A stretch of 64,000 nt of DNA from Mesotoga infera (GTDB taxonomy: Bacteria > Thermotogota > Thermotogae > Petrotogales > Kosmotogaceae), in contig NZ_LS974202.1 of NCBI RefSeq assembly GCF_900157305.1, positions 1,178,001-1,242,000 on the forward strand. The letters are read 5' to 3'. Numbering within the stretch: position 1 is the first letter of the stretch; the number at the start of each line of letters is the position of its first letter. The position numbers and the translations under genes are program-made. The notes under the pieces are model-generated. The model worked only from the letters and a program-made list of their open reading frames with translations. It was not told the DNA's origin and ran no database searches. This document shows positions 1-60,480 of this stretch, piece by piece.

Positions 1-359
1 TTAATCCACTCAACTGCTTGTTTGTGCTCATCTCTTGCTCTTTTGACAATCCACACAATCACTTCGGCTCCCTTACCTGAAGCGTAGGTGATTATCTTAC
101 CCAAGTGGTCATGGTTTGTATCTTCCAGCTGGTTTTCGATAATGATTTTCCGACCTGTGCCGTCTTCAGTTCCATAGAGATCGACATTGAACCCTCCAAC
201 AGGAGATTCTAGTTCTTCGAAAACAATATCAATACCGATTGCTTCACTAAGTAGGACCAGATTCTCTTCTTGAGCTAACCATTTGGAAAAGTCATGCGTC
301 TCATGTTGCCAGATTGTTCGTAAATCATCTACGCGTTCAATTCTACCCAGCGCTGGCAT
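1..359 (-). CDS. DUF4268-type PD-(D/E)XK-like protein, 3' end off the window
   Basis: This reading frame starts at the ATG at 359-357 and is open to base 1, so only the first 119 residues are visible. A good ribosome site (GGAGG) lies 7 bases before the ATG. The N-terminal part (MPALGRIERVDDLRTIWQ) is followed by a stretch with the order GGFNVDLYG, then KIIIENQLEDTNHDHLG, then ITYASGKGAEVIVWIVKRAR. This is the pattern of the N-terminal domain of DUF4268 proteins, which resembles a restriction-endonuclease fold with D and E-x-Q core residues. Such proteins often lie in defence regions, and this one is directly downstream of a BREX operon on the same strand. A defence role is inference. The 240 bases separating it from brxL hold no other gene that I can see. 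Confidence 0.75.
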   Translation of the reverse strand, partial: MPALGRIERVDDLRTIWQHETHDFSKWLAQEENLVLLSEAIGIDIVFEELESPVGGFNVDLYGTEDGTGRKIIIENQLEDTNHDHLGKIITYASGKGAEVIVWIVKRARDEHKQAVEWI

Positions 360-599
360 GCAGTTACCTCCTTGTTTCGCAAAGAACTCTCTGAACCCTT
401 CTGTGGACAATCCGCTTAGCAAGAAAAGCAAAAGTAGAAATGCTAGAACAAAATCGCCTCAATACTCTTTAGCGATAAGGCTTTCTTCACAGTATTATTG
501 TTTTCACTTAGGTCCTTTCGGTGCATTAACTACTCGTCATTAATTCTCGTTTCATTCCTCTTTGATAATTCGGATGTTCTTTAGCCCCAGTTGCAGCCC

Positions 600-2615
600 T
601 CAATCCTCCAGCCTGGCGCGCATAAAGGCATCTTCCGGGCCGGCGATGGGTATCGGGATGATTTTCGAGATCGTGTCCATCGAGACGCTAGACAGGTTTC
701 CCATCTGCTCCAGAGGTATGGTGACTGCCCTTGCACCGTTCTCGGCGAGCATAGTGACCCTGTCGGCGAAGGACAGTGTGGTCTTAAGGCTTCCGGTTAT
801 AGTCATATCCCCTATGATCCCCAGCCCCTTCTTCAGCGTGTTTCTGTGTATGGCCGAGAGTATGGAGACGAATATGGCGACGGTTATGTCATCGCCCACT
901 TCACTGCCTATCATAGGGGTTAACTGTACTGCTATGTCATAGTCTTTCAAAGCCGAGTTGGATGGCAGGTACTTGCGCTGGTTGGAGGCTATGCAGGAGA
1001 CCGTTGTCTTCAGCGCCTCTTTGGCAGGCGTCCCGCCACCGCTTATGTTCTGCTTCCCCGAGCCCGGTACTACGATACTTTCGACTTTCAGCAGCGTGGT
1101 CTTTCCACCGGCTATCGAGACGGTATAAACAACCCCCGGAGGAAGAGGATCCTGAGAGATGAGAGCTTTGCTGCCGCCTTCGTTTACGGACACGTAGGTC
1201 TCTTTCTTGCTCTCTTTGTCTATATACGAGAAGTTGGTGTCCCAGAACTCGAGGCCTCCCAGTTTCTTCAGCTGTTCTTTTACACGTCTCCTGCATTCTA
1301 TGGCGAAGGAAAGAACACTCTCTATCCCCTCTTTCGTGTACTCGCCGTCGGGATAGAGGAGTTTGAGAAGGCCCGAGCAGGTCTTGCGTACCGCCTTCTC
1401 GTCCCTCCTGTTCAGCTGGCTCCCCAGATTGAAGTGTCTGTCCGGTACGTTTACCGCAGAGGTGCCCCTTAAGGATCTCATAACTTCCGAGAGGTAGTCT
1501 ATGGCAAATCCGAAGTGGTCGGTGAAGAGGTCCGCTCTCAGTTTCTCCACTTCCCAGCCTGGGAGGTAGGCGTGTATCCTGTCGAGTAAGGCGGTATCTT
1601 GCATCTCCACGGGGAATGGCTCAAAGAGGTGCGACATCTTCAGTAGCGTCTGCACATCGTCGTTTATATTCCCGTTGAAGACTATCCCGGCCTCGGCCAC
1701 TACCTCCACCTTTCTGGCGAACGAGCCTGCCTCCATAAAGTCTTTGAGCATCTGCAGCGCCTGTTTGTCCTTGAACTGTATGCCGGCGACTTCATCAAAA
1801 GCTATAAGGTCCCACTCTCCCACGAGCCCTACCTTGCGTGTGGCTATGTTGTAGAAGAGCTGTGCGACGGTCGTATTGCCTCCGGATAGCAAGAACGAGT
1901 ACGGCGAGATTTCACGGTAGATGTACGATTTACCCGTAGCCCTGGGTCCAAGCTCCACGAGGTTGTAGTTCTTCTCCACCAGAGGGACGAGTCTGAGGAG
2001 TTGAAAGAGCTTCTGTCTCTCGTCCATTTTCTTCGGCTCCAGGCCTATCGAGCGGATTATGAGGTCTATCCACTCCTGTGTGGTGAACTCCTTTCTCCTT
2101 TCCACGAACTGGTCGCGTATGAAGTTGCTCAGCTGTATTGGGTGTATCTTATCTACCACGAAGGGTCTTCCCGGGTAGGTGTTGTGGTCGTAGATCAGAT
2201 CGATTATCGCCCACATTCCGCCCAGAAGCATCTTCGGGTGTTCCTTGACCAGAAAGTCGCTTATCACTCCGTTGCGTATGCTCAGGTTCTGGAGGCCGGC
2301 AACGTATTCGTTCTGCTTTATGTCAAGCCAGGCGTCTATCCTGTCGATCACCCTGAAAAAACCCTTGTCACGAAGCTGCATTTTGACCAGTTCTGCCATA
2401 TCCGGCCGGAGGAAGTGTTTCTGGAGGATCTCTTCTACGTTTTCCACGCCCTTAATATTCCTCGGGTCTGAGAGGTCGGCGTAAGTCCCAAGCAGGTGCT
2501 CGAGGACGTATGTGGGCACGTTGTAGCCTATCTTGAGGTTCCTCACGAGTGATTTCTTTATCACGTATTCGGGGTATATCTTCAGCACTTTCAGGTCAAG
2601 GGCGTCCAGTTCCAC
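600..2615 (-). CDS. brxL: BrxL, Lon-like AAA+ protein of type 1 BREX
   Basis: This 671-residue protein is the last gene of the BREX operon. The N-terminal third is the BrxL-specific region. An ATPase core follows, with a P-loop GPRATGKS near residue 223 and an acidic strand DLIAFDEVAG near 270. The C-terminal 150 residues resemble the Lon protease fold (GDMTITGSLKTTLSFADRV is the Lon GEITL-like segment). The usual Lon PSAG serine motif is not visible: the equivalent stretch reads GSEVGDD, so peptidase activity is doubtful. In BREX systems BrxL is needed for phage exclusion and can bind DNA. The start lies 15 bases after the pglZ stop, so the two are probably co-transcribed. Length and gene order fit type 1 BREX. 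Confidence 0.93.
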   Translation of the reverse strand: MELDALDLKVLKIYPEYVIKKSLVRNLKIGYNVPTYVLEHLLGTYADLSDPRNIKGVENVEEILQKHFLRPDMAELVKMQLRDKGFFRVIDRIDAWLDIKQNEYVAGLQNLSIRNGVISDFLVKEHPKMLLGGMWAIIDLIYDHNTYPGRPFVVDKIHPIQLSNFIRDQFVERRKEFTTQEWIDLIIRSIGLEPKKMDERQKLFQLLRLVPLVEKNYNLVELGPRATGKSYIYREISPYSFLLSGGNTTVAQLFYNIATRKVGLVGEWDLIAFDEVAGIQFKDKQALQMLKDFMEAGSFARKVEVVAEAGIVFNGNINDDVQTLLKMSHLFEPFPVEMQDTALLDRIHAYLPGWEVEKLRADLFTDHFGFAIDYLSEVMRSLRGTSAVNVPDRHFNLGSQLNRRDEKAVRKTCSGLLKLLYPDGEYTKEGIESVLSFAIECRRRVKEQLKKLGGLEFWDTNFSYIDKESKKETYVSVNEGGSKALISQDPLPPGVVYTVSIAGGKTTLLKVESIVVPGSGKQNISGGGTPAKEALKTTVSCIASNQRKYLPSNSALKDYDIAVQLTPMIGSEVGDDITVAIFVSILSAIHRNTLKKGLGIIGDMTITGSLKTTLSFADRVTMLAENGARAVTIPLEQMGNLSSVSMDTISKIIPIPIAGPEDAFMRARLED

Positions 2616-2630
2616 GTGCGTGTCCTCCTA

Positions 2631-4844
2631 TCAGAAGAGCCGCTCTCTCGTCGGAAGGTATTTGCATTCTACCCAGTCCAGTAGAGCTCCGTCTTCTAAG
2701 TCTCTTATCTCTATTTTGAATGTGTCACCGCTCTTTGCAGCTATTTTGAGCGTCTGCCTCGTCTCATCTTCTACCGGTTCGTCCAGTTCGATCCTCTCGT
2801 CCAGACACTGTATGTACACTCTCGGAGCGCTGCCGAAGAGGTCTTTTTCGGGGAAGAGGAGTATGTCGAAGCGGTCTTTCTGGACTGTCTTCAGTCTGTC
2901 TTTGTTTCCTATCTCCACTCTCCAGCGCTTCTTCCCTTTGATCGGTGTTATTACCAGATGCGGGATTATGACTTCCTGATGTGTTATACCGCCGTGCCAG
3001 AAGTGGCCGCCGTAGTCTTTGAATACGTTTCCGCTGCCGGCGTACAGCACGAAGCTGCTGCCGGCCTGTTCGTACTTCCCCTCTTCGGGTTTGACACTGT
3101 TCAGGCTATACCTTACTCCGGCTGAGTAGCTCCCCGTCCCGTCCTGTTTGACTTTCTCCCCTTCGAGCGGGAGGTAAAAACCGTGGTCGCTTGTGAAGTG
3201 TACCTCATACCCCCTCTTGAGCAGTCCGTCGGCCAGTTCTGAAAGGTCGGCAATTATCCCGTCGTAGAACTTTATCAGGTCGTCGTGGCCCATAGAGTCT
3301 ATGTCCCTTGTCTTTATAACTATCTTCTCGGCTTCCGGTAATCTGGTGCCCATTTCGACTATCTCGACCCCGGGTACGAGCTCTTTGAGGTTCTCCTCTC
3401 TGCTAGTCACATTATCCAGTATTCTGCCCGTCTCTTTGTCACGGATAATGACTCTCCTGTCCTTGAGGCTCTTTTCAATATGCCCAGATGAGTATAGAGC
3501 GCCCATTCCCACGGGCGTTTCGGTCGGTGTCGCCGCCAGTACAGGGTCGTACTCTGTCTTGACTTCTCTCTTGAGTTTGAGATCGCGGGCAAGTTCATAC
3601 CTTAGAGCGTCCACGACGATGACCGCCTTCTTGCCCTCTCCTGTAAGTATCCGCCTCAAAAGGCCGGCCTGTTGGGGCTCTATTGAGGGTTCGTAGTAGT
3701 TGGTCCAGTGGTTTGAGATCACTTCGTTCAGCTTTGAGAGTCTGTCTGAGGCCCATTTCTTCAGTCTTTCGGGCAGGTGTGAGCCTCTGAGCTTTCTGTA
3801 CAGCGAGTCGTAACGCCAGAGTCTTTCTTTGTAGGCCTTGAGAAAGCTCTCGAGTGAGTCTATGCCGCCGAGGTCTTCATCTTGAAGAAGAGGTTCGAGA
3901 CTTGCGAGTTCTTCCCAGTAGATACCGGCCTCTCTGTCCTGTTCTCTTTTCTTGCGTTTCCCGGTGCGCTCTTTTGCAAAAGCTATGACTTCCTCCGCAT
4001 CTTCCCCATTCAAAAGGGCGTCTATCCTTCTTTCGTACAGCTCAAGCTCTATGGAAACAAACGGGTGTTTGTAGTCGCGCTCGAAGGTGTCTATGTTTTT
4101 CAGAAGTTCGTCTTTATGGCTCTTTTCAAATCTCTCCGCGTGCAAATGTATGCTGTCTGAGTATGTGCTAGAGTCTGCCCATTCGTTGTAGTAGTCGAAA
4201 AGTTCGTCGCCCGGTCTGCTCTTGTAGGAGGATTGGAGTATCTTCTCGCCTATCTGCGTCGATGCCTCTTCCGGTGATGACGATGCCACGAGTTTAAGGC
4301 CGAAGGTAGTGTTTGCAAAGTGTATGAATACAAACTCTCGCTCCGCTTGAGTGAGGCTCTCCGCATAAACGCTGTTATTAAGGAGTTCCCAAAGGCTTGC
4401 CCTCAATACTTTGCTTATATTCTCCACACCGCGTGCCTTGAGGTCTTTCCACCAGTCTTCGTCTTTGGACAGACCGTACCTGACAAGGGAGACGAGGAAG
4501 TCTTTTTTGAAGTCTTTCCGGTCGATCCTCAATTCACTCAACAGGTTTATGGCCGAGACTAGCTCTCCGTTTCCCCTGTCCCAGTATTCGGCGAGGAAGA
4601 CGAGGTCTTTCTCGGACCTGTTGGCTATGTAAATGAGGACTTTTCTACCCGATTGTGCAAGGCTCTCGGCCTCGAGCATAGTGAGGTACTCCCTGTCCAT
4701 ATCCGTCAGGGTCAGGCAGTGCCAGCCCCTGTCCTCGAAGTATGAGAGGCTCTCTCCAAGTAAGAGATCGGAGTCTTTAAGGACGACGGGTATGGAATCG
4801 TCCAGTCTCTCGAGTCTAGCCAGTACGGTATTAAGTAAGTGCAT
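2631..4844 (-). CDS. pglZ: PglZ, alkaline-phosphatase-superfamily BREX protein
   Basis: This 737-residue protein has the PglZ layout: a variable N-terminal half and a C-terminal alkaline-phosphatase-like domain. The metal-site strand reads KAVIVVDALRYELARDL near residue 410, followed by ATPTETPVGMGAL. A later metal-binding segment reads EVHFTSDHGFYLP, and the sequence GGHFWHGGITHQEVIIPH near the end supplies His residues typical of the superfamily. PglZ is the signature protein of all BREX types. Its biochemical role is still debated, and proposals include a nuclease or phosphodiesterase acting with PglX. The start is only 4 bases after the pglX stop, indicating translational coupling. Confidence 0.93.
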   Translation of the reverse strand: MHLLNTVLARLERLDDSIPVVLKDSDLLLGESLSYFEDRGWHCLTLTDMDREYLTMLEAESLAQSGRKVLIYIANRSEKDLVFLAEYWDRGNGELVSAINLLSELRIDRKDFKKDFLVSLVRYGLSKDEDWWKDLKARGVENISKVLRASLWELLNNSVYAESLTQAEREFVFIHFANTTFGLKLVASSSPEEASTQIGEKILQSSYKSRPGDELFDYYNEWADSSTYSDSIHLHAERFEKSHKDELLKNIDTFERDYKHPFVSIELELYERRIDALLNGEDAEEVIAFAKERTGKRKKREQDREAGIYWEELASLEPLLQDEDLGGIDSLESFLKAYKERLWRYDSLYRKLRGSHLPERLKKWASDRLSKLNEVISNHWTNYYEPSIEPQQAGLLRRILTGEGKKAVIVVDALRYELARDLKLKREVKTEYDPVLAATPTETPVGMGALYSSGHIEKSLKDRRVIIRDKETGRILDNVTSREENLKELVPGVEIVEMGTRLPEAEKIVIKTRDIDSMGHDDLIKFYDGIIADLSELADGLLKRGYEVHFTSDHGFYLPLEGEKVKQDGTGSYSAGVRYSLNSVKPEEGKYEQAGSSFVLYAGSGNVFKDYGGHFWHGGITHQEVIIPHLVITPIKGKKRWRVEIGNKDRLKTVQKDRFDILLFPEKDLFGSAPRVYIQCLDERIELDEPVEDETRQTLKIAAKSGDTFKIEIRDLEDGALLDWVECKYLPTRERLF

Positions 4845-4848
4845 AGTG

Positions 4849-7800
4849 TTACCACTCCACTTTCAGCATTTTATCCACCAGCTTTGTGCTGAGGGGGTTG
4901 TATTTGAGCAGGCCCTTCTTCTGGAGGGGCGCTATGTTTTTGGCCACTCCTCCGTCTATCTCGGGGAGGTAACAACCGTCAGAGAGTTCGTCAAGCGAGA
5001 TCGCCAGTCTCTCGAGCTCTTCCATCCTCTCCATTAGCTTTGCCCTCTTCTTCTCGTCGGTCTCGGTGGCGAGCGTGTTCTCCAGTGTCATTTTGACGTG
5101 GCTCAAATATTTGGATTTCAGGAGGAGCATTCTGTCGTAGCACCATATGTGATGCAGCACAAAGAAGTTTACGCTGCCTTTGTCGGACACCAGATGCCAT
5201 ATTATTGGCCTGTTCATAAACCGCTTCGAGTGGTCTTTGAAGAAGTCTTTTAGCAGGTATTCCTCCAGTTTCTTGCCCAGCAGGTTTTCTACTTCGTTAT
5301 ACGTGTCTCCAATGCCGAGAGCGCGCCATTTCTTCACTATTCTTGTGGGCAGTGAGGGCTCGGCACTGTCTGTTGACAGTGATACTATCCCGTCGTTGTC
5401 CTCGCGCAGTATATCCAGTGTGAGCGCCTGTATGTGCTCGGAAAGTACGTCCTTTACGGCTTCTTCGGGTAGGGCGTCAATTTTCGACAGCTCTTCGGCT
5501 ACGGTAACTGGACTGACTTTAAGCGCGCCGGCGAGCTCTTCGACGATCCCGAACTCCATCCCCGTTATGGCCTCGCTTTTGCCCGAACCCCTGTCGTGCC
5601 TGTGCTTGAGATAGAGTTTTCTGAGTTTCTCCCTCTCTTTTTCGGTCAGTTCGCGCCGGGGATATGCACCGACGGGTATGCCTTCCGATTCAAGGACCTC
5701 GAGAACGGCAGCGTAGAGGTCAGAAGAGCCGTCCTGCGTCCTTCGTCCCAGATCGTGGACCCGTCCTTCGTTAAGAGCAGAAGGCGCATCTTCCGTGAGC
5801 GACCCCAAGAGCCCGGATTGTGTAATCACATCTGAAAGTGTCAGGTCTTCGGGCAGGAGTCCATACAGTTTGAAGACGAGTTCGTCGTTCACCGCTTCGT
5901 TTATAAGAAGTCTCGCCTCGAGCTCAGCCTTATGGATGAAGAACTTCTTCAGGGCGTCTTTTACCCTCACTTGCCCGCCCTCTTCTCTTAATTCTTTCAG
6001 TCCCCAGCTCAATGGGTCGTGTTTGAAGTCGCGTTCCATAACGTGGAAGCTGTACAGCTCTTTCTTTAGCTCTATGCAGTCCCGAGCGAGAGAGGAGAGA
6101 GTAACCGAGTTGAGCGTGGAGAGTGGAGAGTGGGACGAGAGACCGCCGAGAAGGTCACGGATTTCGGCAGCGCTTATGGCTTTACTCCCGAGGGTTGATG
6201 GTTCGGGAATTGGTATGGTTTTCAAGTCTCCAACTTGGAAGTCAACGTTTGGTCTTATTGACAGAGACATATATGAAAATAATTTCGAGGTCAGTACCGA
6301 CAGAAACTCCCAATCTGAGCCCATTATGGGAAAGATAGCACTTCCCTTTACATCAAAAATGTGGTTGATGGGCATTTGCCTATAAGTAGGACCTGAACTG
6401 GTCGTTAAAGTATAAGTCAACCCCTCTCTGAAGTAGTCGGATTCGTTAGTAACTACAAAAGAATAATTTCCTTTCAAGTATGGGAATTTCTCTACAATAG
6501 ATTGTTTTATCTCTTTCCCATCGTCTTCCCAGTCAACTACCCACCACAAATTCCCGTACCACTTGTTGTAAGGCCCGCCCTTAGCATAGGGTACCCATTT
6601 CTTTCTATCACTCTTGTAATCAAGCGAGATGTCTTCCTGCTTCACTTCCCACCAGAAGCGAAGGAAACGGTCATTATTGCAGGTAGATAATCCGTGAGAT
6701 ACGTTGGCATACTTCATCAGGGGCTTGTACTTCTTGAACAGCTCCCTTATCCTATCGCTTATCCAGTGAACGAAGGGATAGCCCGGGATCTTCTTGAACT
6801 CGGACTGGTTCAATGTATAGGCCCTCTCCGGTACTCTGCCTGCGAGCGTCTCACTTATCGTCCTGACTTTTTCGCCGTAGTCGAGATCCTTCACACTGTG
6901 GAAGGATGTTTCCAGATGCCCGTTGCCCCTCTCTATGGCGAACATAACGGTGTTGACTATCTCGCCGCCTATACTCCTGAAGGCTCGCGGCCCTAGATGA
7001 ACCAGAGATGAGATCCTCGCTTCCTCCAGAAGGAGCTTCCTTAGCTTCTCGTGTGAGGATATGAACATAAACGACTGCATAGTAACCATCCCAAGAAAGC
7101 CTCTCTCCCCGGTCAGGTCAAGACACTTCTCAATGAAGGCAGAGTACATATCCGATTTCGAGTCCGGGTAGTATTCCTTCAGGAAGGTCTTCATATCTTC
7201 AGAGAGTGTGCCCGAGTCTCTGTAAGGCGGATTTGTCACAACAACATCGTATTCGCTCAACAAAAGCCTTATCGCGTTGAACTGCTTTGCATAGTCGCTG
7301 TTAAGGAGAGCCGAGACGGCGTCTGCCTGTACCGGTAACTTCTCTTCTATCGTGTTGACCATCTTCTGTATGAGTCTGTCCATCGACCTGTCGGTGGAGG
7401 CCTCCATAAGAACCGCAGTCTTCTCTATCTTCTTTTTCTTGCCTGCCGGCTTCATTCTGAAGAGGGAGCCGATCATATTGAGCTTTTTGAGGCTCGTGAG
7501 TGTTTCCATAAGGTTGCGGATCACAGGGTTGGTGAGGTCGGAAAGGCCCATTGAGATCATTAGGTCGGATTCGTCGAAGTGATCCATAGATAAGGCATAG
7601 AGATTCGATCTCGTAAGTTTGGTCTTCCTAGACAGATTCTTGGCCTTCAGATAGAGACTCAATGCCGTCAGTTGTATCGCCCTGTCATCTATGTCCAGAC
7701 CGAAGAGGTTGTTCTCAACTATCTTCCGGGGTATATCTTCGGTGTGCCCGGAATCGAGATACATCTGGTGCAGGAGGTCCATAGCGTAGAGAAGAAAGTG

Positions 7801-8643
7801 GCCACTCCCGCAAGCCGGGTCCATAACGGTTATCTCCTCGACAGGTTTCTTATCGCGGCTCTTTACCGGTACAGTTGTGTCGTAATACTTCAGCGAGTTT
7901 CTTAAGGGGCTTTCGGGGTGCATCTCCAGCCAGTAACGGCCCAGCGTGTTGTCGAGTATGTATTTGACTATGTAGTCTTCAGTGTAGAACTGGGTGACAC
8001 TCACGAGTTTGTAAGAGGAATCGACCTTCTTTTTTGCCGAAATTTCAGCGTAGATTCTCGCTTTTTCTGCTTCCTGGTAATACTGATAAATCCAGCCGAT
8101 TATGTCGTCTTTCAGCCATTTCTCCGGGTCTATGGAGTTAATGAGATCGATCACCGTAACGGTGTCGTTTGGACGCGGGAGAAAGCCGTAACGGCTGCCG
8201 TTGTAGAGCTGGGGAAGTTCCTGTGACAGCTCCTGAAATATCTCTCTGAGGACGTTGTTAATGCCCTGTCCCGGCTCACTCCGGGCCTGCGGGTTTCTGC
8301 TGAGATACAGGTAATGTGCCTCGCTCTTTCCGCCGGTGTCTATGCTCTTGGTAACATACGTCCTCTCCAGCAGGCCCCGCGCTTCCATCGCTTTGAGCCC
8401 GACGAGCCTGTTGAGAGTGGTGAACGAGGCCTCCTGAACGAACTTCTCTCTGGCTTCTTTAATGCCCAGTTGCTTTTCATCTGCCTGCACTATCGGGAGT
8501 ATCTGCTCACGTAGCCCTTCAGAGCCAGGGAAGGCCCTGCCCATATCGCCGCTCTCCGTAATCCCGCACTGTTTAAGAAGGAGCGGATACGATCGCTCCA
8601 GTGTCTCGCGTATCTGTATTATCGTCTTTTCTAGATCGGCCAT
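4849..8643 (-). CDS. pglX: PglX/BrxX, BREX adenine-specific DNA methyltransferase
   Basis: This 1264-residue protein is a class I N6-adenine methyltransferase. The AdoMet site is DPACGSGHFLLYAMDLL near residue 275, and the catalytic motif is VVVTNPPYRD near residue 470. The flanking regions and C-terminal target-recognition part match PglX of type 1 BREX. Known PglX proteins methylate one strand of a non-palindromic site to mark self DNA and are also required for defence. Residues about 955-974 (EGRVHDLGRRTQDGSSDL) are encoded by a copy of an intergenic repeat found several times elsewhere in this window, joined in frame; this segment lies well outside the catalytic motifs. The start follows the brxC stop by one base. 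No frameshift is visible. Confidence 0.94.
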   Translation of the reverse strand: MADLEKTIIQIRETLERSYPLLLKQCGITESGDMGRAFPGSEGLREQILPIVQADEKQLGIKEAREKFVQEASFTTLNRLVGLKAMEARGLLERTYVTKSIDTGGKSEAHYLYLSRNPQARSEPGQGINNVLREIFQELSQELPQLYNGSRYGFLPRPNDTVTVIDLINSIDPEKWLKDDIIGWIYQYYQEAEKARIYAEISAKKKVDSSYKLVSVTQFYTEDYIVKYILDNTLGRYWLEMHPESPLRNSLKYYDTTVPVKSRDKKPVEEITVMDPACGSGHFLLYAMDLLHQMYLDSGHTEDIPRKIVENNLFGLDIDDRAIQLTALSLYLKAKNLSRKTKLTRSNLYALSMDHFDESDLMISMGLSDLTNPVIRNLMETLTSLKKLNMIGSLFRMKPAGKKKKIEKTAVLMEASTDRSMDRLIQKMVNTIEEKLPVQADAVSALLNSDYAKQFNAIRLLLSEYDVVVTNPPYRDSGTLSEDMKTFLKEYYPDSKSDMYSAFIEKCLDLTGERGFLGMVTMQSFMFISSHEKLRKLLLEEARISSLVHLGPRAFRSIGGEIVNTVMFAIERGNGHLETSFHSVKDLDYGEKVRTISETLAGRVPERAYTLNQSEFKKIPGYPFVHWISDRIRELFKKYKPLMKYANVSHGLSTCNNDRFLRFWWEVKQEDISLDYKSDRKKWVPYAKGGPYNKWYGNLWWVVDWEDDGKEIKQSIVEKFPYLKGNYSFVVTNESDYFREGLTYTLTTSSGPTYRQMPINHIFDVKGSAIFPIMGSDWEFLSVLTSKLFSYMSLSIRPNVDFQVGDLKTIPIPEPSTLGSKAISAAEIRDLLGGLSSHSPLSTLNSVTLSSLARDCIELKKELYSFHVMERDFKHDPLSWGLKELREEGGQVRVKDALKKFFIHKAELEARLLINEAVNDELVFKLYGLLPEDLTLSDVITQSGLLGSLTEDAPSALNEGRVHDLGRRTQDGSSDLYAAVLEVLESEGIPVGAYPRRELTEKEREKLRKLYLKHRHDRGSGKSEAITGMEFGIVEELAGALKVSPVTVAEELSKIDALPEEAVKDVLSEHIQALTLDILREDNDGIVSLSTDSAEPSLPTRIVKKWRALGIGDTYNEVENLLGKKLEEYLLKDFFKDHSKRFMNRPIIWHLVSDKGSVNFFVLHHIWCYDRMLLLKSKYLSHVKMTLENTLATETDEKKRAKLMERMEELERLAISLDELSDGCYLPEIDGGVAKNIAPLQKKGLLKYNPLSTKLVDKMLKVEW
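5722..5779 (-). repeat. Intergenic-type repeat inserted in frame within pglX
   Basis: The 58 bases here align at about 50 positions, with one 2-base gap, to the non-coding repeat at 57294-57351, which contains the words GAGCCGTCC, GTCCCAGATC and GTGGACCCGTCCTT in the same order. Related copies lie near 16210-16252, 31921-31981, 46828-46880 and 60413-60457. Read on the minus strand in the pglX frame, it encodes part of residues 955-974. The sense orientation and frame are kept, so it adds a short peptide and does not break the gene. Confidence 0.8.
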
Positions 8644-8644
8644 A

Positions 8645-11600
8645 TCAGTCCTCCAGCTCTATTTCTATCTCTGTGTTATCGTTCAGCGTCAGTTTCTCAA
8701 GCTCTCTCTTCAGTTGCAGATATGTGAGTCTTCTCTTGAGCTTTAATCTCTCACGTCTGACCGGCGGAGGCGTGGTAACGGGTCTCTCTTCCATAAACTT
8801 CTCATAAGAGGCCTTCAACCCTTCAAGTTTGCCCTTGAGGCTCGCTATCTCCAGAACGGCCTCACGGAAGCCTATATGGCAGTGCTCGCACTTTGAGGAG
8901 AAGCGTATCTCGAGTTCGTTGCAGGGAGAATTCGGCGCTTTGAACCAGCTCTGGTCCGCCGCCCTCTTACCCAGCTGGTTTCGCTCTTCACGTATGGAGT
9001 CGAGGTACTCTTCTATCTCGCTCAGCAGTCGGTCTCTTTCGTTATGGACGGGGTTGAAGTAGCCTTTGTAGGTGTTTCTTAGCTTCTCGAAGATACCGTC
9101 CAGATCGGTGCCAAATGAGGCGATGCTCGGGAGAGTGTCTCTATACTCCTTCACCAGCGCAGATAACTCTTCAGACTGCCCGTCGTCGAACTCTCTCTTG
9201 GCTATCTCGCCATCTATGTCTTTCAAAAAGCCCCTCTGCTTCTTTATCTTCTCGTAGTTTTTCTTAAGGAAGTCTTCGGTCTTGTCTGCGATTTCCTTCA
9301 GCTCCCTTAAGATAGTCCTCTCCTCCAGTAGTTTGTCAAGACAGTCGTGGCCGCCCCCGACAAGCAGGTTTATAAGTCCCTTCGTCTTGTCCAGCTCCCA
9401 GTTAACGGCCGCACCGAGCTCTTCCATCTTTCCCTTGAGTTCTTCAAGGGTTCTGTACAGACGTTTAAGGCCATCGAGGGCGTGAGTTATGAACTCGCTC
9501 CTTGGTGACTGGAGCGAGAGTTTCCCGTCGTCCAGCAGAGGGTTTATAAGCTGTATTAGTCTGTTCCTGTCTTCTGTCGAGAGCACAACGCTCTTGCGTA
9601 TCTTTGCATTTTTGAACTCGCCGACACTCTTAAATGCCTTGTGCACTTCGGGCTTGCCGTACGAGTCTATGTTGTTCAGCGTTATCTTGCCCCCGCGCAT
9701 AAGGCAGGCCACAGAGTACATAACCGTCTCCTGAGTCCAGCCGTATGGAGGAGATGTGAACTCCTCCAGCAAGTCCGCGCCCGTCCTGTCTTCTTTCAAT
9801 GACCGTATAACGGGCGAGATTATCTTGTGGGTCTCTATTAGCTCGCCATTCTCGTCGAAGACACGGTGGTCATCGTCAACCCGCACTGTCTTCAACGTGT
9901 TCTGCGGTCTGGTCAGCACGTCCTCTATGTCTTTGGACTTCGCAGTAGTGGCGGTAATGTCAGTATAGTAAGCAGGGATAACCCTGTCTTTTATGAACTC
10001 CTTGAGTTTGTAAAGTATGTTGCCACCGGAGATTAACTCACCCACATAGACGAGCTTTCCCTTCTCGAAGCTGTGGCGGATCTCTCCGGTCAGCTCTCTC
10101 TTCTTGTTTTCCATAGTCTCCGAATACTTTGCGAGTATCTCTCTGGTGTCACCGCCTGTCTTGTATGTGCGGAACGAGTCTAAAGAGACCTCCAGCCTCT
10201 TTATCTCGCGGGCCAGCGTGTCTATTTTGTCGTTTTCCTCGGGTATTAGATAGACCGTATCGGCGTGGTTCACAGACTCGAACTCTATACCCTCCACATT
10301 CGCCCCGGTGAATGAAGCGACACTGACTTTTAGGCCCTTTTTCTTGCTACTGATCGAATTACCTTCAAAGAGCCACTCTACGGGTACGCTTGGGCCGTCT
10401 CCGTACTGGATCTCTCTGTAATCCCTGTGGTTGGATATTGCCTGAAGCTGCCTGACTATCTCTTCGTTTCTTTTGGGTATGTCTATGATGGTTTCATTCA
10501 TCTCTTTTATAAACTCTCTCTCGAGATCGGTCACCAGATCTATCTCGCCGTTATAGCGGGTCACGTATCTGTTATCAACTAGATAGTCAATAACGTCCCT
10601 GACTTCTTTGCCCAGATCGTACTCTTTGTCGTAGATGCTTTTCACGAGCAGCCGGGTTATGACCGTCTCGCTTGCCTTTATCTTCGTCAGGTTCTTCAGG
10701 ATATGGAGAGTCTTGAGTATGTCGGAAGCCTTTACGTTTCTGCCAAGGTAGTCGTCGGCGCTTCTTACAAGCGCCATTACTTCAGAGCCGAAGAAGCCCG
10801 GTCCGAGTGCGTCGAAGAGGTCGGTGGCGTTCACCATCCTGCCAAACTCTTCATCCTTCAGGTTCTTCAGTATGAAATCGACCAGAGAGATAAACTTGCG
10901 GGTCGTTGCCTGCTGGTAAGATTTCCCTCTGGCGTTCTGCACAAAGTCCGGTATGAGCTGGAAATGGTAGGGATGGAAGGGATAGTAGTTCATAAGGTCG
11001 TCTTTGGTTTCGGTCTTTTTGTAGCTTCCTTCCGTGTTGCTCAGTGTGGTTATGTTACCCTGATTGTCTCGCATCGTCTTCTCAAAAAGCGGCTCTGTCT
11101 CTATCTTTTTCTTCAGCAGCCTCTCACGGGCCACCTCGTCCACGTTCTCGGAAGTTAGGTCTAGCCTTACCTCGAAGCGGTCGGTCAGTTTTCCGAGTTT
11201 GTGCTTGTCGAAGTTGCTGTTGGCTATTAACTGGTCTAGCTTCTCCTGAGAGGTCACTATAAGCCTTACCGAGCCCTTACCTTTGGACGAGAAGGCTTCG
11301 GCCACCGCCTGTAAGGCGAGTATCCTGTCGTCGTTGTCTTTTATTGAGGTCACGTACTGGCCTATCTCGTCTATGATGAAGACCAGGCGTTTCCCTGTCT
11401 TCTCTGTATAGGCGACGCAGTGATCGGCAAACTCACCGGGCGTGAGATTTTTGTATTTGTCCACCGCCGATCTAAGGAAGTCTTTAGCCTCTTCCAAGCT
11501 GTACCCGAGCCGTTCTGCCATAACGCGCGATACGAGGCGGCGGAACTCGCCAGCATTGGTGGTTATTTTGCCGTAGTCGTCTCCTCCGGCCTTTATGAGC

Positions 11601-12139
11601 TCTCTTATCTTTTCCAGATGGCCGAACTCGTCCAGTTCATACTCCATAATCGCGACGCTCGGGACGCTAGAGTAACCGCCCGCCTGAAGGAGTTTTTTGA
11701 ACATCACCTGCTGTACGGTATCTTCGGTCATAGAGCCTTCGCCTATTATCTCGAACATTATCACCGTGGCAGGTATGCTGTTGAGAGCGCTTATACTTGC
11801 CTTGAGGAATTCGGGGTTTGCGCAGCTGGCTACCCTTTCGTTGAAGAGCTCGCGTGCCGTTATGCCCCTGGGCAGGGCGTGATTGGAGAGCAGGTAGCCC
11901 AGTATCTTGGCAAAATATGACTTTCCCGAGCCAAAGAAGCCCGAGATCCAGACGCCTATCTTTTCGGTGGATGGGAGCTTATAGTTCAGGAGAAAATTCT
12001 CGAGATGGCTCTCTATTTGGTGAGTCACTATGTACTGGGAGATTTCCTTCTGCTCGAGTTCAAGGTTCTGATCCCCCGCTTTTATGACCAGAGGGACTTC
12101 CTCAGCTATGTTTATCTTCAGAAGATCTTTTATTTTCAT
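8645..12139 (-). CDS. brxC: BrxC, large P-loop ATPase of BREX
   Basis: This 1164-residue protein carries a P-loop GFFGSGKSYFAK near residue 67 and an acidic Walker B strand RLVFIIDEIGQYV near residue 270, followed by a sensor segment LRLIVTSQEKLDQL. The C-terminal third is rich in heptad-like charged helices and contains a CEHCH cluster (residues near 1090) that could bind metal. BrxC (also called PglY-like) is a conserved BREX ATPase thought to drive assembly or DNA engagement. It lies second from the promoter side in a tight operon with brxB (24-base gap) and pglX (1-base gap). Confidence 0.94.
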   Translation of the reverse strand: MKIKDLLKINIAEEVPLVIKAGDQNLELEQKEISQYIVTHQIESHLENFLLNYKLPSTEKIGVWISGFFGSGKSYFAKILGYLLSNHALPRGITARELFNERVASCANPEFLKASISALNSIPATVIMFEIIGEGSMTEDTVQQVMFKKLLQAGGYSSVPSVAIMEYELDEFGHLEKIRELIKAGGDDYGKITTNAGEFRRLVSRVMAERLGYSLEEAKDFLRSAVDKYKNLTPGEFADHCVAYTEKTGKRLVFIIDEIGQYVTSIKDNDDRILALQAVAEAFSSKGKGSVRLIVTSQEKLDQLIANSNFDKHKLGKLTDRFEVRLDLTSENVDEVARERLLKKKIETEPLFEKTMRDNQGNITTLSNTEGSYKKTETKDDLMNYYPFHPYHFQLIPDFVQNARGKSYQQATTRKFISLVDFILKNLKDEEFGRMVNATDLFDALGPGFFGSEVMALVRSADDYLGRNVKASDILKTLHILKNLTKIKASETVITRLLVKSIYDKEYDLGKEVRDVIDYLVDNRYVTRYNGEIDLVTDLEREFIKEMNETIIDIPKRNEEIVRQLQAISNHRDYREIQYGDGPSVPVEWLFEGNSISSKKKGLKVSVASFTGANVEGIEFESVNHADTVYLIPEENDKIDTLAREIKRLEVSLDSFRTYKTGGDTREILAKYSETMENKKRELTGEIRHSFEKGKLVYVGELISGGNILYKLKEFIKDRVIPAYYTDITATTAKSKDIEDVLTRPQNTLKTVRVDDDHRVFDENGELIETHKIISPVIRSLKEDRTGADLLEEFTSPPYGWTQETVMYSVACLMRGGKITLNNIDSYGKPEVHKAFKSVGEFKNAKIRKSVVLSTEDRNRLIQLINPLLDDGKLSLQSPRSEFITHALDGLKRLYRTLEELKGKMEELGAAVNWELDKTKGLINLLVGGGHDCLDKLLEERTILRELKEIADKTEDFLKKNYEKIKKQRGFLKDIDGEIAKREFDDGQSEELSALVKEYRDTLPSIASFGTDLDGIFEKLRNTYKGYFNPVHNERDRLLSEIEEYLDSIREERNQLGKRAADQSWFKAPNSPCNELEIRFSSKCEHCHIGFREAVLEIASLKGKLEGLKASYEKFMEERPVTTPPPVRRERLKLKRRLTYLQLKRELEKLTLNDNTEIEIELED

Positions 12140-12163
12140 TACCCCGACCCCCTACTGTCTATT

Positions 12164-12697
12164 TCAGATCACTAAAGCCCTGTAAACCGATGTCGTGTGC
12201 CTTCCGTCTAGAAATGTGAGGATATGGTCCTTCCTCTTTCCCGGATAAATAAAGAGGGCGGGATTGGCGAGATTGCCGGTCACGCCCTCGATCAACGGGT
12301 TGAGACCAAAGAAACCGTTGAGTATCCCGAGTCTGTGTACGGCCGTTATAGGGTTCGCCTTTGAAGACTCGACGATACTCTCGATAAGACCGTTTAGCAG
12401 TAGCTTTGAGAAGTCGCCTATGCTAGACTTCCCTAGAAACGAGAAGTCGTCCTCCAGATTCTCCATACCATAACTCTTAGCAGTCTCTACGAGTTTAGCC
12501 CCGAAATTGAGCAGGTTTATCCTGCCCTCGAAACGCATCTTCAACTCACGTACCGCCGTCGCCTCTTCCTTCGGAGCTACTATGAGGACTATTACCCGGG
12601 AACCTTCCGTCTCGCTGACGAGTGAATCCGCCCTTGAGAGCTTGTCTGAGACCATATCCAGCTTCTCTGAGAGTGTGAGGTTATCGCGCAAGTGCAT
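12164..12697 (-). CDS. brxB: BrxB, DUF1788 protein of BREX
   Basis: This is a small 177-residue protein with the DUF1788 pattern: an N-terminal helix-rich half, IVLIVAPKEEATAVRELKMRFEGRINLLNFG in the middle (quoted in part: RELKMRFEGRINLLN), and a C-terminal strand NPALFIYPGKRKDHILTFLDG (key part ALFIYPGK). BrxB occurs next to BrxA and BrxC in type 1 BREX and is required for activity in studied systems; its biochemical role is unknown. Its first 17 bases overlap the end of brxA, which points to coupled translation. Confidence 0.9.
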   Translation of the reverse strand: MHLRDNLTLSEKLDMVSDKLSRADSLVSETEGSRVIVLIVAPKEEATAVRELKMRFEGRINLLNFGAKLVETAKSYGMENLEDDFSFLGKSSIGDFSKLLLNGLIESIVESSKANPITAVHRLGILNGFFGLNPLIEGVTGNLANPALFIYPGKRKDHILTFLDGRHTTSVYRALVI

Positions 12698-13436
12698 CGA
12701 GCAACACCTCGAAGTCTATCTTCGGCTCAAGCCTTACAACGTCTCCTGCCATAGCGAACTCTATGATCCCGGAAGCGTTCAGCCCCGCAAGGTAAGAGAG
12801 GAGATCCCTCTCGTCCAGAAGCAAGTATTTGAAATCGTCTGCCTTCAAAATGGCGGAAGGTGAAAGTTTTGAGTTGAAGAGGAAGTACAGGACCGCGGTA
12901 ACGCTCTCTCGTTTAGGGCGGAAAAAATGCAAATCTATATTCTTGCCGTTAGATTCGGCCATACCGAGCTTTGATGTTATTGAGAGGTAGTTTGTTATCC
13001 TCTTGTCAGACATATACTTTGTGAAGCCCGCCTTCTTGACGATAAACTCGACTACGTCTTCACGTAGCAGGAAGGGCTCTCCCCTGTGGTAGGCAGGATA
13101 TATATGCTCGAGTGTGAGCGCCCTGGCGAGCGAGTCCCTTTCGCAGTTCTTCCAGAAGAGCAACTCACGTTTTATCTGCGTCTCTATTACGTCGGAAGTC
13201 ATTATGCGCGCAAAGACGTCCAGCGCTGAAGGAGTGAAGCCCCTGACGTAGTCGCCGATTAGCCAGTTGGCTATATTGCCTCTGTACTCTCTCGACTTGT
13301 TGAAGGGATCGTCTTCCACCAGGTGTTTTCTGATCTCTTCGGCATTTCTTCCCTTTATTACTTCGCCCATTATGTAGATGACATTGTCCAGGTGATCGAA
13401 CGCTTTATCCAGATGTGTTCTTGAGTTCGGTTGCAT
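12681..13436 (-). CDS. brxA: BrxA, DUF1819 protein of BREX
   Basis: This 251-residue protein is the first gene of the BREX operon. The sequence shows the DUF1819 pattern with WLIGDYVRGFTPSALD near residue 60 and a helical centre with LFWKNCERDSLARALTLEH. BrxA of other bacteria is a small DNA-binding protein built of winged-helix-like units. The start ATG at 13436 has GGAGG 9 bases upstream and a promoter-like pair just before it, so transcription of the operon probably begins here. No WYL-type BrxR regulator gene is present upstream; the neighbouring DNA is repeat sequence. Confidence 0.9.
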   Translation of the reverse strand: MQPNSRTHLDKAFDHLDNVIYIMGEVIKGRNAEEIRKHLVEDDPFNKSREYRGNIANWLIGDYVRGFTPSALDVFARIMTSDVIETQIKRELLFWKNCERDSLARALTLEHIYPAYHRGEPFLLREDVVEFIVKKAGFTKYMSDKRITNYLSITSKLGMAESNGKNIDLHFFRPKRESVTAVLYFLFNSKLSPSAILKADDFKYLLLDERDLLSYLAGLNASGIIEFAMAGDVVRLEPKIDFEVLLDALAR

Positions 13437-13465
13437 ACACTGGGACCTCCGTGTCGGGTAACTGG

Positions 13466-13495
13466 ATTATAACAACTATATTGTCGTTTGAACAA
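13466..13495 (-). promoter_or_regulatory. Putative BREX operon promoter
   Basis: On the minus strand a TTGTTC box (13495-13490) is followed after 18 bases by a perfect TATAAT (13471-13466). The brxA start codon lies about 30 bases downstream with its GGAGG site between. This is the only strong sigma70-like pair I see upstream of brxA. Confidence 0.6.
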
Positions 13496-13786
13496 GTGTA
13501 GAATCTGACAGGATAAACCCTTGTGGCACAGTTAGAAGCCGAATCGGTGTTTACGGGACAATTATCCTCTTCGGTACTAAGATACCTGAGGAATTGGAGA
13601 AAGATATCGAGCGTATCCTTGAAAGACTGTTATAGCGGCTTATAAAAGATACTGCCTGTTATCTGTTTAAAGCCATTAGCCTGACGCCGTGAAACCCTTC
13701 GCTCACGAGGCGGACCAGCGGTAAGAAGATCAAGAACTTTGCGCTCTTCCAACCTCACGCCTCCGACCTCTACTCTTTCATTGCGT

Positions 13787-14206: not shown

Positions 14207-16141
14207 GTGCGCCCGGCATGGTACACAACTATAGGGTGAAAGACCCGAATGTGGGGAGTCAAAGAAGCATTAGCCAGAGGCAAGGGTGTCACTGGTAACG
14301 GTGAATCTGAAGGAAGCCCGAGGCAAAGTCCGGAACTGAACGAAAGTGAACCAGAGATGGCCGTTACAGAGGGTAACCCTGCGAGATAAGGGAAAGCCCT
14401 GACTCCAGCTGTAAAGGTTCGGATGGCAGGATTCGGATGAAAGTGGTGTATCTTACCCGGGGAAGTCCTCATGAGTCCGAAAGGGGTAACCGTTAGCAAG
14501 GAGGAGATCCAAGTTAAGGGAAAGCTCAGGAGGATGGCAGATGAACCCGTAGTAGTGAAGAACCTCTCCGAAAGGAGAAGGGACCTTGGCTATAAGCCAA
14601 GGGGGTGATGAGGAGGTCGAAAGGCTCCATCACTTGCGAAGGGGAGAAGGATCGAAGAAATGTGATCGGAAGACAGTGAAGAGACTTAGGTCAGACAGTT
14701 AAAGACAAGGTACATATTCCCGGGAGGGTAGAGAAGCCAGTCATTAATTGTCGCAACAATATCTGAGGCTGGAGCTGTTGGAAGGGAGCATGCAGGAGAA
14801 AGAGATGAAGTATTACAGTCTAATCGACAAAGTCTATTCGAAGAAGAACCTATTGAAAGCCTATCACAGGGTAAACTCCAACAGAGGAGCTCCTGGGATA
14901 GACGGAGTAACCGTAAAATCATTCGGGGAGAAACTCCTTGAAGAAATCGAGAGATTATCCGAAGAAATCAAGAGCGGTGAGTACATGCCCATGCCACTCA
15001 GGAGAGTAGAAATCCCAAAAGCAGATGGTAAAACAAGGCAATTGGGAATACCTGCTGTGAGAGACAGGGTGGTACAACAATCTCTCAAGGAGATACTGGA
15101 ACCTATATTCGAGGAAAGATTCCATCCCTCCAGTTACGGTTACAGAAAGGGAAGAAATGCCTGGCAGGCGGTGGAGAAGGCGAAAGCTTTTGCATCCAAA
15201 TACGGTCTGTGCAATGTAGTGGAACTTGACCTGAGCAAATGTTTCGACACTCTGGATCATGAGAAGATAATAGACTCCGTAGCAGAGAGAGTGAGTGATG
15301 GAAAGATACTCAAACTCATACGCGCAATGCTGAAGAGCGGAGTAATGGAAGATGGAGTCTGGAAGGCAACAGAAACTGGCAGTCCACAGGGTAGTGTAAT
15401 AAGTCCCCTGCTGGCGAACATCTACCTGGACGAGTTCGACCAGAAGATGAAAGCCAGAGGAATAAGGATAGTCAGATATGCAGACGACATATTAATCTTC
15501 TCGAAAACCCAGGAAGAAGCCCGAGAGTTTCTGGCAATCGCGATCAACATACTGGAGATTGACATGAAGCTCAAGGTCAACAGAAACAAGACGAGAATCA
15601 CAACACTGGAGGAGGGCTTTCACTTTCTTGGCTTCGAAATAAAAGGCGAGAGAGTTGGGATAGAGAAATCCAGATTGAAAAGGTTCAAGGGAAAGGTCAA
15701 GGGACTTACAAGAAGGAACCAGAGCACACCGGTAAAGGAAATAGTGAAAGAGCTAAATCCACTGTTGAGAGGATTTGCCAGCTATTTCAGGATAGTAGAC
15801 TTACAATCTACCTTGAGAGGGCTTTTGAGCTGGATAAGGAGAAGGCTTAGAGCCATCATACTACACCAGTGGAAGAGCACAAAGAAACTGAACAGAGTCC
15901 TTAGAAGGGCTGGATGGGAAGAGAAAGTCAATTTGAGAATGAACAAATGGCGCTCTTCTCACACAAAAGCAGTCAATTACGCCATTCCCAACAGGTTCTT
16001 TGAAGAGATGAACTTATTCGATATGACATCGTACTATCATCCCCTGTCGAAGTATCCGATACTCGATCCATGAGCCGTGTACGAGGCCCGTACGCACGGT
16101 TCTGTGAGAGGACGAGGGGCTCCGCCCCTCTCCTACTCGAT
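14207..16141 (+). mobile_element. Group IIC intron, apparently intact
   Basis: The 5' end GTGCGCCCGGCATGG and the following words CTATAGGGTGAAAG, GCAAGGGTGTC, GAATCTGAAGGAAGC and TCTTACCCGGGGA match the domain I core of the Oceanobacillus-type group IIC intron. Domain V starts at 16072 (GAGCCGTGTACGAGGCCCG, then GTACGCACGGTTC), overlapping the stop codon of the encoded protein. Domain VI ends in CTCCTACTCGAT at 16141. The 1935-nt element carries a reverse transcriptase gene. It is inserted exactly three bases after the hairpin ATTCTGAG...CTCAGAAT, the mode of insertion known for group IIC introns. The 3' flank GTTCTTTCCTC resembles the sequence that follows uninterrupted copies of the hairpin. 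Confidence 0.92.
14748..16073 (+). CDS. ltrA: Group II intron reverse transcriptase/maturase
   Basis: This protein of 441 residues has RT motifs in order: NRGAPGIDGVTVKSF, RRVEIPKADGKTRQLGIP, VVELDLSKCFDTLDHEK, TGSPQGSVISPLLANIYLDEFD, the catalytic VRYADDILIF, and GFHFLGFEI. A GIIM maturase domain follows (FASYFRIVDLQ, LLSWIRRRLRAIILHQWK). There is no HNH endonuclease domain, which fits class C introns. The longest frame begins with TTG at 14748, but an ATG at 14805 has AGGAG six bases upstream and is the best-supported start; the ATG at 14790 is also possible. The gene is in domain IV of the intron and its stop overlaps domain V. It would splice and mobilise its own intron and perhaps the broken copy at 57415-60372. 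Confidence 0.93.
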   Translation: MSQQYLRLELLEGSMQEKEMKYYSLIDKVYSKKNLLKAYHRVNSNRGAPGIDGVTVKSFGEKLLEEIERLSEEIKSGEYMPMPLRRVEIPKADGKTRQLGIPAVRDRVVQQSLKEILEPIFEERFHPSSYGYRKGRNAWQAVEKAKAFASKYGLCNVVELDLSKCFDTLDHEKIIDSVAERVSDGKILKLIRAMLKSGVMEDGVWKATETGSPQGSVISPLLANIYLDEFDQKMKARGIRIVRYADDILIFSKTQEEAREFLAIAINILEIDMKLKVNRNKTRITTLEEGFHFLGFEIKGERVGIEKSRLKRFKGKVKGLTRRNQSTPVKEIVKELNPLLRGFASYFRIVDLQSTLRGLLSWIRRRLRAIILHQWKSTKKLNRVLRRAGWEEKVNLRMNKWRSSHTKAVNYAIPNRFFEEMNLFDMTSYYHPLSKYPILDP

Positions 16142-16385
16142 GTTCTTTCCTCTGTCTTGAACCAGGAACGAGGAACCTGGACTCGCAGCATCGGAACGAG
16201 AAACTGCACGAAGGACGGGTCCATGATCTGTGACGAACAACGAAGGACGTCTCCTCGAAGCTTACAGCGTCTCTTTTTGCTCGCGAAGCGGAACTAGCCA
16301 GGCATAGCCTGACTGGCTTGCGCCAGCAGATTGGCTTTAAAAACGCCTCCTGCCGAAGGCAGTCTCATGTCTTTCAATTCGCAGC
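16142..16385. repeat. Repeat sequence 3' of the intron
   Basis: The 248 bases before the next gene contain a segment (16143-16200) matching the 3' flank of the second intron copy, then the GGACGGGTCCATGATCTG repeat (16215-16232), the word GCGAAGCGGAACT also seen reversed in the 103-bp repeat, and an imperfect hairpin AGCCAGGC...CTGACTGGCT near 16300. I see no gene. Confidence 0.6.
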
Positions 16386-31581: not shown

Positions 31582-32100
31582 TAAATGAAACATGTTTTCG
31601 TGGTGCCAGTTCCGCTTCGCGGGCAGAAGATCGGTGGAGAGTGGGGAGAAAGAGCGTTATCGAGAGTTGGCTGCCGGTTGTTGGTAAGAACGAGATCCCG
31701 TATAGGAGTCCTGAATTTGATCATATCAGGACAGGCTCCACTGGATGACACGGGATGACAGCCCCCTCACGTCATTCTGGCATGTTCCTAGCCAGAATCA
31801 CGTTCTTCCTCCTTCCCGTCATTCTGAGCTTGACTCAGAATCACGGTTTTCTAAGGAGTGAATCCCGGGTCGGAGCCCGGGATGAAAGGATGGGGGCATT
31901 CTGGATGCGTAACGTCGAGGACCGCTCTTTCCAAGGACGGGTCCATGATCTGGGACGACTGACGAAGGACGGCTCTTTCCGGTCTTCTCACAGACATCTT
32001 CCGATGCTTTTCATATCCATCGTCTCTTCCAAAAAGAAAATGCATCCGGGCCCATTTTATGTCGGGCTAAGATGCATCTTCTGTCTTTCTCGTTCAGAAC
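31582..32100. repeat. Repeat cluster including a 103-bp segment shared with 13787-13889
   Basis: 31607-31709 repeats 13787-13889 almost exactly, differing at about one position. It is followed by hairpins ATTCTGGC...GCCAGAAT (31774-31799, then CACGTTCTTC), ATTCTGAG...CTCAGAAT (31822 onward) and the GGACGGGTCCATGATCTG repeat (31937-31954) that also occurs inside pglX. I see no gene on either strand. Confidence 0.8.
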
Positions 32101-46824: not shown

Positions 46825-46951
46825 AGTGGAAGAACCGTCCATCGTCCGGCGTCCCGGAGCGTGAACCCGTCCTTCGAAAGAGCCTAGAGCACGAGCGGAG
46901 TACATCAATCCGTCATTCTGAGCTTGACTCAGAATCACGTTCTTCCTCCTT
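46825..46951. repeat. Hairpin repeats before the tandem array
   Basis: 46828-46880 carries the CGTCC-rich repeat (GAACCGTCCATCGTCC, then GAACCCGTCCTTCGAAAG). 46913-46938 is the hairpin ATTCTGAG...CTCAGAAT followed by CAC and GTTCTTCCTCC. This last junction, 46938/46939, is the uninterrupted equivalent of the site that holds the intron at 14207. Confidence 0.75.
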
Positions 46952-47426: not shown

Positions 47427-47566
47427 CCCGTCATTCTGAGCTTGACTCAGAATCACGGTTTTCCAAGGAGTGGATCCCTGGAGCCCGGGATGACGGGATC
47501 GGTGCAATAGGGAAAAGGTTTGAGGTTTATTATTGTTATTGAATGACGATACTGAGGAGGCGTCGA

Positions 47567-57179: not shown

Positions 57180-57414
57180 ACTTGTTGTCGACCTGAATAA
57201 CCTCCCCCTCGGCTACCCGCACCGTCATTTCGTGTCATACCGTTAACCGCCCCACTCATGTCATCCCGTAATGATCTTATACGGGATCTCGCTCAGAAGA
57301 GCCGTCCATCGTCCTGCGTCCCAGATCATGGACCCGTCCTTGGAAGAGCAGTTCCTTGTTCCGACGCTGTGCGTTCAGGTTACTCGTTCTTGGTTCAAGA
57401 CAGAGGAAAGAGCG
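57180..57414. repeat. Hairpin repeats adjoining the second intron
   Basis: The segment contains ATCCCGTA...TACGGGAT in reverse (57263-57288), the CGTCC-rich repeat 57294-57351 that is the closest relative of the pglX insertion, and the 3' flank of the intron (57352-57414), which matches 16142-16200. No gene is present. Confidence 0.75.
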
Positions 57415-57482
57415 ATCGAGTAGGAGAGGGGCGGAGCCCCTCGTCCTCTCACAGAACCGTGCGTACGGGCCTCGTACACGGC

Positions 57483-57847: not shown

Positions 57848-57958
57848 TGTCGACATCAACAGTAAAATAAGAAAAACGCCGGTAGAAAATGTGAAAAAGC
57901 ATCGGGAGAAATTGTGGACTAACATTTGAATATTCTCAGGCAAAAAGGGGGTATTCAG

Positions 57959-59050: not shown

Positions 59051-59051
59051 A

Positions 59052-60372: not shown

Positions 60373-60480
60373 GAGATGCCGGATCAGGTCCGGCATGACG
60401 GGAAGGAGGAAAGGACGGGTTCACGCTCCGGGACGCAGGACGATGGACGGTTCTTCTCGCTCTTCCCGCTCTTCATTCTG
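60373..60480. repeat. Hairpin repeat at the 5' side of the second intron
   Basis: ATGCCGGA...TCCGGCAT (60375-60398), then the CGTCC-rich repeat GACGGGTTCACGCTCCGGG and GACGATGGACGGTTCTTC (60414-60455). No gene is present. Confidence 0.7.

What the first reader, a model, noticed from the sequence alone, without database searches (positions are those of the whole stretch)
5722..5779. An intergenic repeat is embedded in frame inside the BREX methyltransferase gene
The sequence shows that a 58-bp element found at several non-coding places in the window (closest copy 57294-57351) also lies within pglX, on the coding strand and in frame, supplying residues about 955-974. The copies elsewhere would encode the same type of peptide (GRVHDLGRRT). 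In-frame coding insertions of palindromic repeats are known from Rickettsia (RPE elements). Here it is in a phage-defence gene that evolves fast, so the insertion could change target recognition or be a neutral loop.
Basis: partly seen in the sequence, partly recalled or inferred. Interest (0 to 1): 0.8.

Follow-up and report, generated by a model that had tools for sequence, protein, structure and literature searches.

The report
Repeat insertion in Mesotoga PglX linker
A short repeat that is scattered between genes in Mesotoga bacteria has once landed, in frame, inside the phage-defence gene pglX, where it adds about 19 amino acids to a flexible linker outside the DNA-recognition part, and it was probably tolerated rather than useful.

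Summary
A ~56-bp repeat (window 5723-5778) lies in frame in pglX of a type-1 BREX operon and encodes residues 956-974. The genome (genus Mesotoga) has 42 detectable copies. The repeat occurs in 10/10 Mesotoga genomes searched and 0/188 others. Among about 160 distinct copies sampled, only the pglX copy, shared by two species, lies inside a recognisable gene. PglX relatives from repeat-free genomes have a 24-34 residue linker there; this one has 49, so removing 19 restores a normal length. That supports insertion into pglX, not origin from it.

One unexpected feature: between the two species pglX has diverged strongly (dS about 1.2), yet across residues 936-971 all 31 comparable codons are identical (0/5000 shuffles) despite five amino-acid changes. 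I read this as a recently exchanged tract of about 110 bp carrying the repeat, under little protein constraint. Most likely a tolerated insertion in a variable linker: a new member of a known kind (intragenic REP/RPE).

The parts
5723..5778 (-). The repeat inside pglX, encoding residues A956-S974
   Evidence: 88.5% to 57293-57351; 52 of 55 consensus positions, rank 3 of 137 copies
4849..8643 (-). pglX, BREX adenine methyltransferase, 1264 aa, intact ORF
   Evidence: Pfam Eco57I, PADLOC PglX 4.5e-179, PDB BrxX/PglX
5731..5838 (-). Tract (residues 936-971) without synonymous change against the other Mesotoga pglX; covers most of the repeat plus about 20 codons of linker
   Evidence: 31 of 31 same-amino-acid codons identical, 0 of 5000 shuffles reach that run
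5713..5814 (-). Predicted coil, residues 944-977; residues 948-974 have pLDDT below 50
   Evidence: AlphaFold2 model of residues 582-1264 with three homologues
57293..57351 (+). Closest copy in the window, intergenic
31924..31977 (-). Intergenic copy
16208..16256 (-). Intergenic copy
60411..60457 (-). Copy in a repeat-derived stretch next to a group II intron end
46829..46883 (+). Copy in a repeat array
8645..12139 (-). brxC
   Evidence: PADLOC BrxC 5.2e-115
2631..4844 (-). pglZ
   Evidence: Pfam PglZ, PADLOC
600..2615 (-). brxL
   Evidence: Pfam BrxL_ATPase 3.4e-133
12681..13436 (-). brxA
   Evidence: PADLOC BrxA 1.5e-9
12164..12697 (-). probable brxB
   Evidence: by position only; no family match

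Best explanation
One copy of a Mesotoga-specific interspersed repeat of about 55 bp inserted, in frame and without a stop codon, into the length-variable linker of PglX that follows the two spacer helices, adding about 19 residues. It disrupts no predicted folded domain and does not touch the target recognition domain, so the reading frame and the operon stay intact and the peptide is a tolerated, probably disordered loop. After the insertion, a tract of roughly 110-140 bp carrying the repeat and some linker was exchanged by homologous recombination between pglX alleles of two Mesotoga lineages. Shown: presence, insertion relative to homologues, genus restriction, position outside the TRD by homology, and the tract without synonymous change. 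Inferred: neutrality, and recombination as the cause of that tract. Unknown: how the repeat moves.
For: Relatives lack the segment and have linkers of 34, 29 and 24 residues against 49 here. Repeat in 10/10 Mesotoga and 0/188 other genomes, including those of the insert-free PglX relatives. The second Mesotoga species has the insert at the same place with the same departure from consensus at its left end (GCTCTTAACG), so one event. Only recognisable gene among about 160 distinct copies. Element open in the frame used. Residues 944-977 predicted coil in an otherwise confident C-terminal domain. Residues 936-971: no synonymous and five amino-acid-changing codons against gene-wide dS 1.2, dN 0.11.
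Against: Only three insert-free relatives, at 57-68% identity and two of them partial, so the exact empty site and insertion length cannot be read. No target-site duplication seen. The model rests on four sequences, and low confidence in a segment absent from the other rows is partly expected. Retention in two species could also mean use. Recombination over so short a tract is unusual.
Confidence: 0.8

Rival explanations
1. The inserted loop was recruited: it has a function in PglX, for example as a contact surface for another BREX protein, and selection keeps it in both species.
For: Kept in frame in two species; the C-terminal region of PglX is suspected to bind other BREX parts (PMC11341690).
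Against: In the tract five codons changed the amino acid and none changed silently, the opposite of purifying selection on the peptide; linker length and sequence vary freely in relatives; predicted coil.
Confidence: 0.1
2. The low synonymous divergence reflects constraint on the DNA or RNA sequence itself (a functional nucleic-acid element), not recent exchange.
For: The repeat family is well conserved (median 49 of 55 consensus positions).
Against: The tract extends about 20 codons into linker that is not repeat and has no similar sequence among the loci held; amino-acid-changing substitutions are not suppressed; no folding signal.
Confidence: 0.08
3. The repeat family originated from the pglX gene and spread to intergenic sites.
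For: The pglX copy is close to the family consensus (52 of 55).
Against: Other PglX proteins lack the peptide; the repeat is abundant in Mesotoga genomes with no close pglX; intergenic copies share ends that differ from the pglX left end.
Confidence: 0.01
4. Chance resemblance.
For: None.
Against: E 3e-17 within the window and 1.5e-15 in the genome, and an insertion-sized length difference in homologues at that place.
Confidence: 0.005

Closest known systems
Rickettsia palindromic elements (RPE) in protein genes (PMC2229807, PMC3767692, PMC10969869)
   Same: Interspersed repeat fused in frame inside a gene for a conserved protein, same site in related species, probably tolerated in a loop.
   Different: About 55 bp instead of 105-146 bp, no palindrome or terminal inverted repeats, and one gene instead of many.
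Intragenic REPs, GTAG- and CGTC-tagged (PMC3733652)
   Same: Short repeats mostly between genes, occasionally inside ORFs where single or grouped units encode peptides (20-30 aa for dimers and groups). CGTC-3 REPs are reported from Mesotoga prima, and similar palindromes lie beside many intergenic copies of this repeat.
   Different: This element is not a tagged stem-loop; it is a separate repeat in the same arrays.
Enterobacterial, Yersinia and Neisseria MITEs with open frames (PMC2229807)
   Same: Open frames that can fuse in frame with genes.
   Different: MITEs listed there are about 100-200 bp, mostly with inverted ends and target duplications; neither is seen here.
E. coli BrxX and Salmonella PglX (PDB 9ewz, 8zek, 8c45)
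   Same: Homologous over methyltransferase and target recognition domain and over a C-terminal block.
   Different: Carries the repeat-encoded extra residues after the spacer helices.

Membership tests
Rickettsia palindromic elements (RPE) | Repeat unit inserted in frame inside a protein gene | tested here: met
   Intact 1264-aa ORF; homologues lack the segment
Rickettsia palindromic elements (RPE) | Palindromic, long stem-loop with terminal inverted repeats | tested here: not met
   Folding z-scores -0.24 to +0.40; ends are direct GCTCTT
Rickettsia palindromic elements (RPE) | Length about 105-146 bp | tested here: not met
   Conserved span about 55 bp
Rickettsia palindromic elements (RPE) | Many unrelated genes carry it | tested here: not met
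   Only pglX among about 160 distinct copies
GTAG/CGTC REP | 20-40 bp stem-loop with terminal GTAG or CGTC tag | tested here: not met
   No stable stem-loop
MITE | Terminal inverted repeats | tested here: not met
   Consensus ends are in direct orientation
MITE | Target-site duplication | tested here: inconclusive
   No clean empty site found
Type 1 BREX | brxA, brxB, brxC, pglX, pglZ, brxL in order | tested here: met
   Family matches for five of six genes; brxB by position only
Type 1 BREX | Site-specific methylation and phage defence | not testable with these tools
   Needs bench work or modification-aware sequencing

The most novel reading that the evidence does not exclude
The repeat-containing linker acts as a recombination patch: the repeat or its surroundings promote very short exchanges between pglX alleles of different Mesotoga species, so that intergenic repeats, once inside a defence gene, help to reshuffle its recognition and C-terminal halves.
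Probability: 0.07. Interest if true: 0.7.

Novelty: new member of a known kind. Interest (0 to 1): 0.38.

Why it matters
It extends in-frame capture of intergenic repeats to a phage-defence methyltransferase and to the Thermotogota, with a repeat that fails the tested defining features of RPE, REP and MITE. It marks a length-tolerant site in PglX outside the target recognition domain. The short tract without synonymous change is a testable sign of very local recombination between defence genes of different species.

Tried and rejected
Structure from the single sequence gave a useless model (mean pLDDT 38.7); the run with three homologues was usable for the C-terminal domain only (mean 55.7). 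Foldseek against the PDB returned only BrxX/PglX as significant but with poor superposition, so domain limits were mapped by sequence. Ten other ORFs over repeat copies were tested as possible coding copies: no Pfam match, and several read as chains of translated repeats. My first reading, an old insertion kept since the species split (notebook), was dropped when the synonymous pattern pointed to recent common ancestry of that tract. Three intergenic loci compared across the genus or with the nearest species gave no clean empty site: the arrays differ in size or the flanks lie on different contigs. No match of the pglX repeat in plasmids. A first count of 173 distinct copies fell to 160, 144 of them strong, after stricter merging. 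A first attempt to hand in this report was malformed and not accepted.

Full report
Setting. The window lies in a single-contig genome of 2,965,660 bp. A same-genus genome in the search set has a contig of exactly 2,974,229 bp, the published chromosome size of Mesotoga prima MesG1.Ag.4.2 (PMC4603820), and the named close PglX relatives are Thermotogae MAGs. I take the genus to be Mesotoga; the species is not determined.

The gene. 4849-8643 (-) is an intact pglX: Pfam Eco57I, PADLOC PglX 4.5e-179, BrxX/PglX of E. coli and Salmonella in the PDB. Around it, all on the minus strand and in type-1 order, are brxA, a probable brxB (position only), brxC, pglX, pglZ and brxL.

The repeat. The pglX stretch 5720-5780 is 88.5% identical to 57293-57351 and matches four more places in the window. 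The genome has 42 matches. All ten Mesotoga genomes searched have the repeat; none of 188 others does. From 137 anchored copies the consensus in pglX sense is GCTCTTTCGAAGGACGGGTCCATGATCTGGGACGAAGGACGAAGGACGGCTCTTC, and conservation falls off on both sides. Inside are 7-bp GGACGAA units; both ends carry GCTCTT in direct orientation. Single strands fold no better than shuffled sequence, so the element is not palindromic. Of 145 copies with enough flank, 78 have one of three palindromic repeat types within 250 bp; the pglX copy has none. CGTC-3 REPs are reported from M. prima (PMC3733652).

Is it an insertion? Four close PglX relatives were informative. G009 (same genus, 83% identity) has the same insert. 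Relatives from three repeat-free Thermotogae genomes lack it. The linker between conserved L930 and V980 is 49 residues in both Mesotoga proteins and 34, 29 and 24 in the others; taking out the 19 encoded residues leaves 30, inside that range. Both Mesotoga copies share the flank and the same departure from consensus at the left end (GCTCTTAACG), so there was one event.

How exceptional is it? About 160 distinct copies were sampled across the genus, 144 of them strong. The pglX copy is the only one found inside a recognisable gene. Other ORFs over copies are mostly short; ten tested have no Pfam match, and several are chains of translated repeats; recognisable neighbouring genes begin after the repeat. 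In the relative M. prima PhosAc3 about 85% of the genome is coding (2,646,577 of 3,113,612 bp), so insertions into genes are avoided or removed. Not every copy was read in every genome, and copies too diverged for the searches would be missed.

Where in the protein? Matches to solved PglX/BrxX place the target recognition domain up to about residue 815 and a conserved C-terminal block at about 1125-1237. [quoted passage not shown] In the model made with three homologues, long helices lie at 849-872 and 894-926, residues 944-977 are coil, and 948-974 fall below pLDDT 50, while much of the C-terminal domain is at 70-89. The insert is thus in a loop after the spacer helices, not in the TRD. The low confidence there is partly due to the thin alignment.

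Recent exchange. Between the two Mesotoga pglX genes dS is about 1.2 and dN 0.11 overall. In residues 936-971 all 31 same-amino-acid codons are identical, a run that none of 5000 shuffles reached; the four other BREX genes tested have longest runs of 6-11. In the same stretch five codons changed the amino acid (937, 945, 954, 967, 970). Purifying selection on the protein would give the opposite pattern; a recently shared tract with a relaxed protein fits. It covers most of the repeat and about 20 codons of linker that resemble nothing else among the loci held, and it ends within three codons of the end of the repeat. I infer short-tract homologous recombination between lineages after the insertion. 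The rest of the window and of the other contig share no long match outside the BREX region. This rests on one pair of sequences.

Conclusion. A known kind of event (in-frame intragenic repeat, as with RPEs and intragenic REPs) in a defence gene, with a repeat family that I did not find described; most likely neutral. Unexplained: how this non-palindromic element moves, and why the exchanged tract is so short. My literature search was limited to open-access papers, so the repeat may have been noted elsewhere.

Noticed in passing
window 14289-16141 (+) and 57415-60290 (-): Two inverted copies of a group II intron; segments 15708-16141 and 57415-57848 are 100% complementary. Both 3' ends sit about 65 bp from a copy of the repeat, so the introns lie inside the repeat arrays.
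   Followed up: partly
window 6212-6529, PglX residues about 705-811: In the TRD region the two Mesotoga PglX proteins fall to 43% identity (residues 701-800) with gaps, against 83% overall; they may recognise different DNA motifs.
   Followed up: partly
window 46948-47474: Tandem array of about 119-bp units made of palindromic repeats, beside a copy of the repeat; the 313-aa ORF 46393-47334 (-) over it is probably spurious.
   Followed up: partly
L103, L104 and L061 (G000) against G003: Intergenic repeat arrays differ by hundreds of bases from the nearest species, and their flanks can lie on different contigs there; arrays may mark rearrangement points.
   Followed up: partly
window 1-13507 against G009 contig C4: The match to the other species' contig is limited to the BREX operon and its edge, and brxL (93% aa) is far more alike than brxC (67%) or pglZ (70%), which suggests a mosaic history of the operon.
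   Followed up: no
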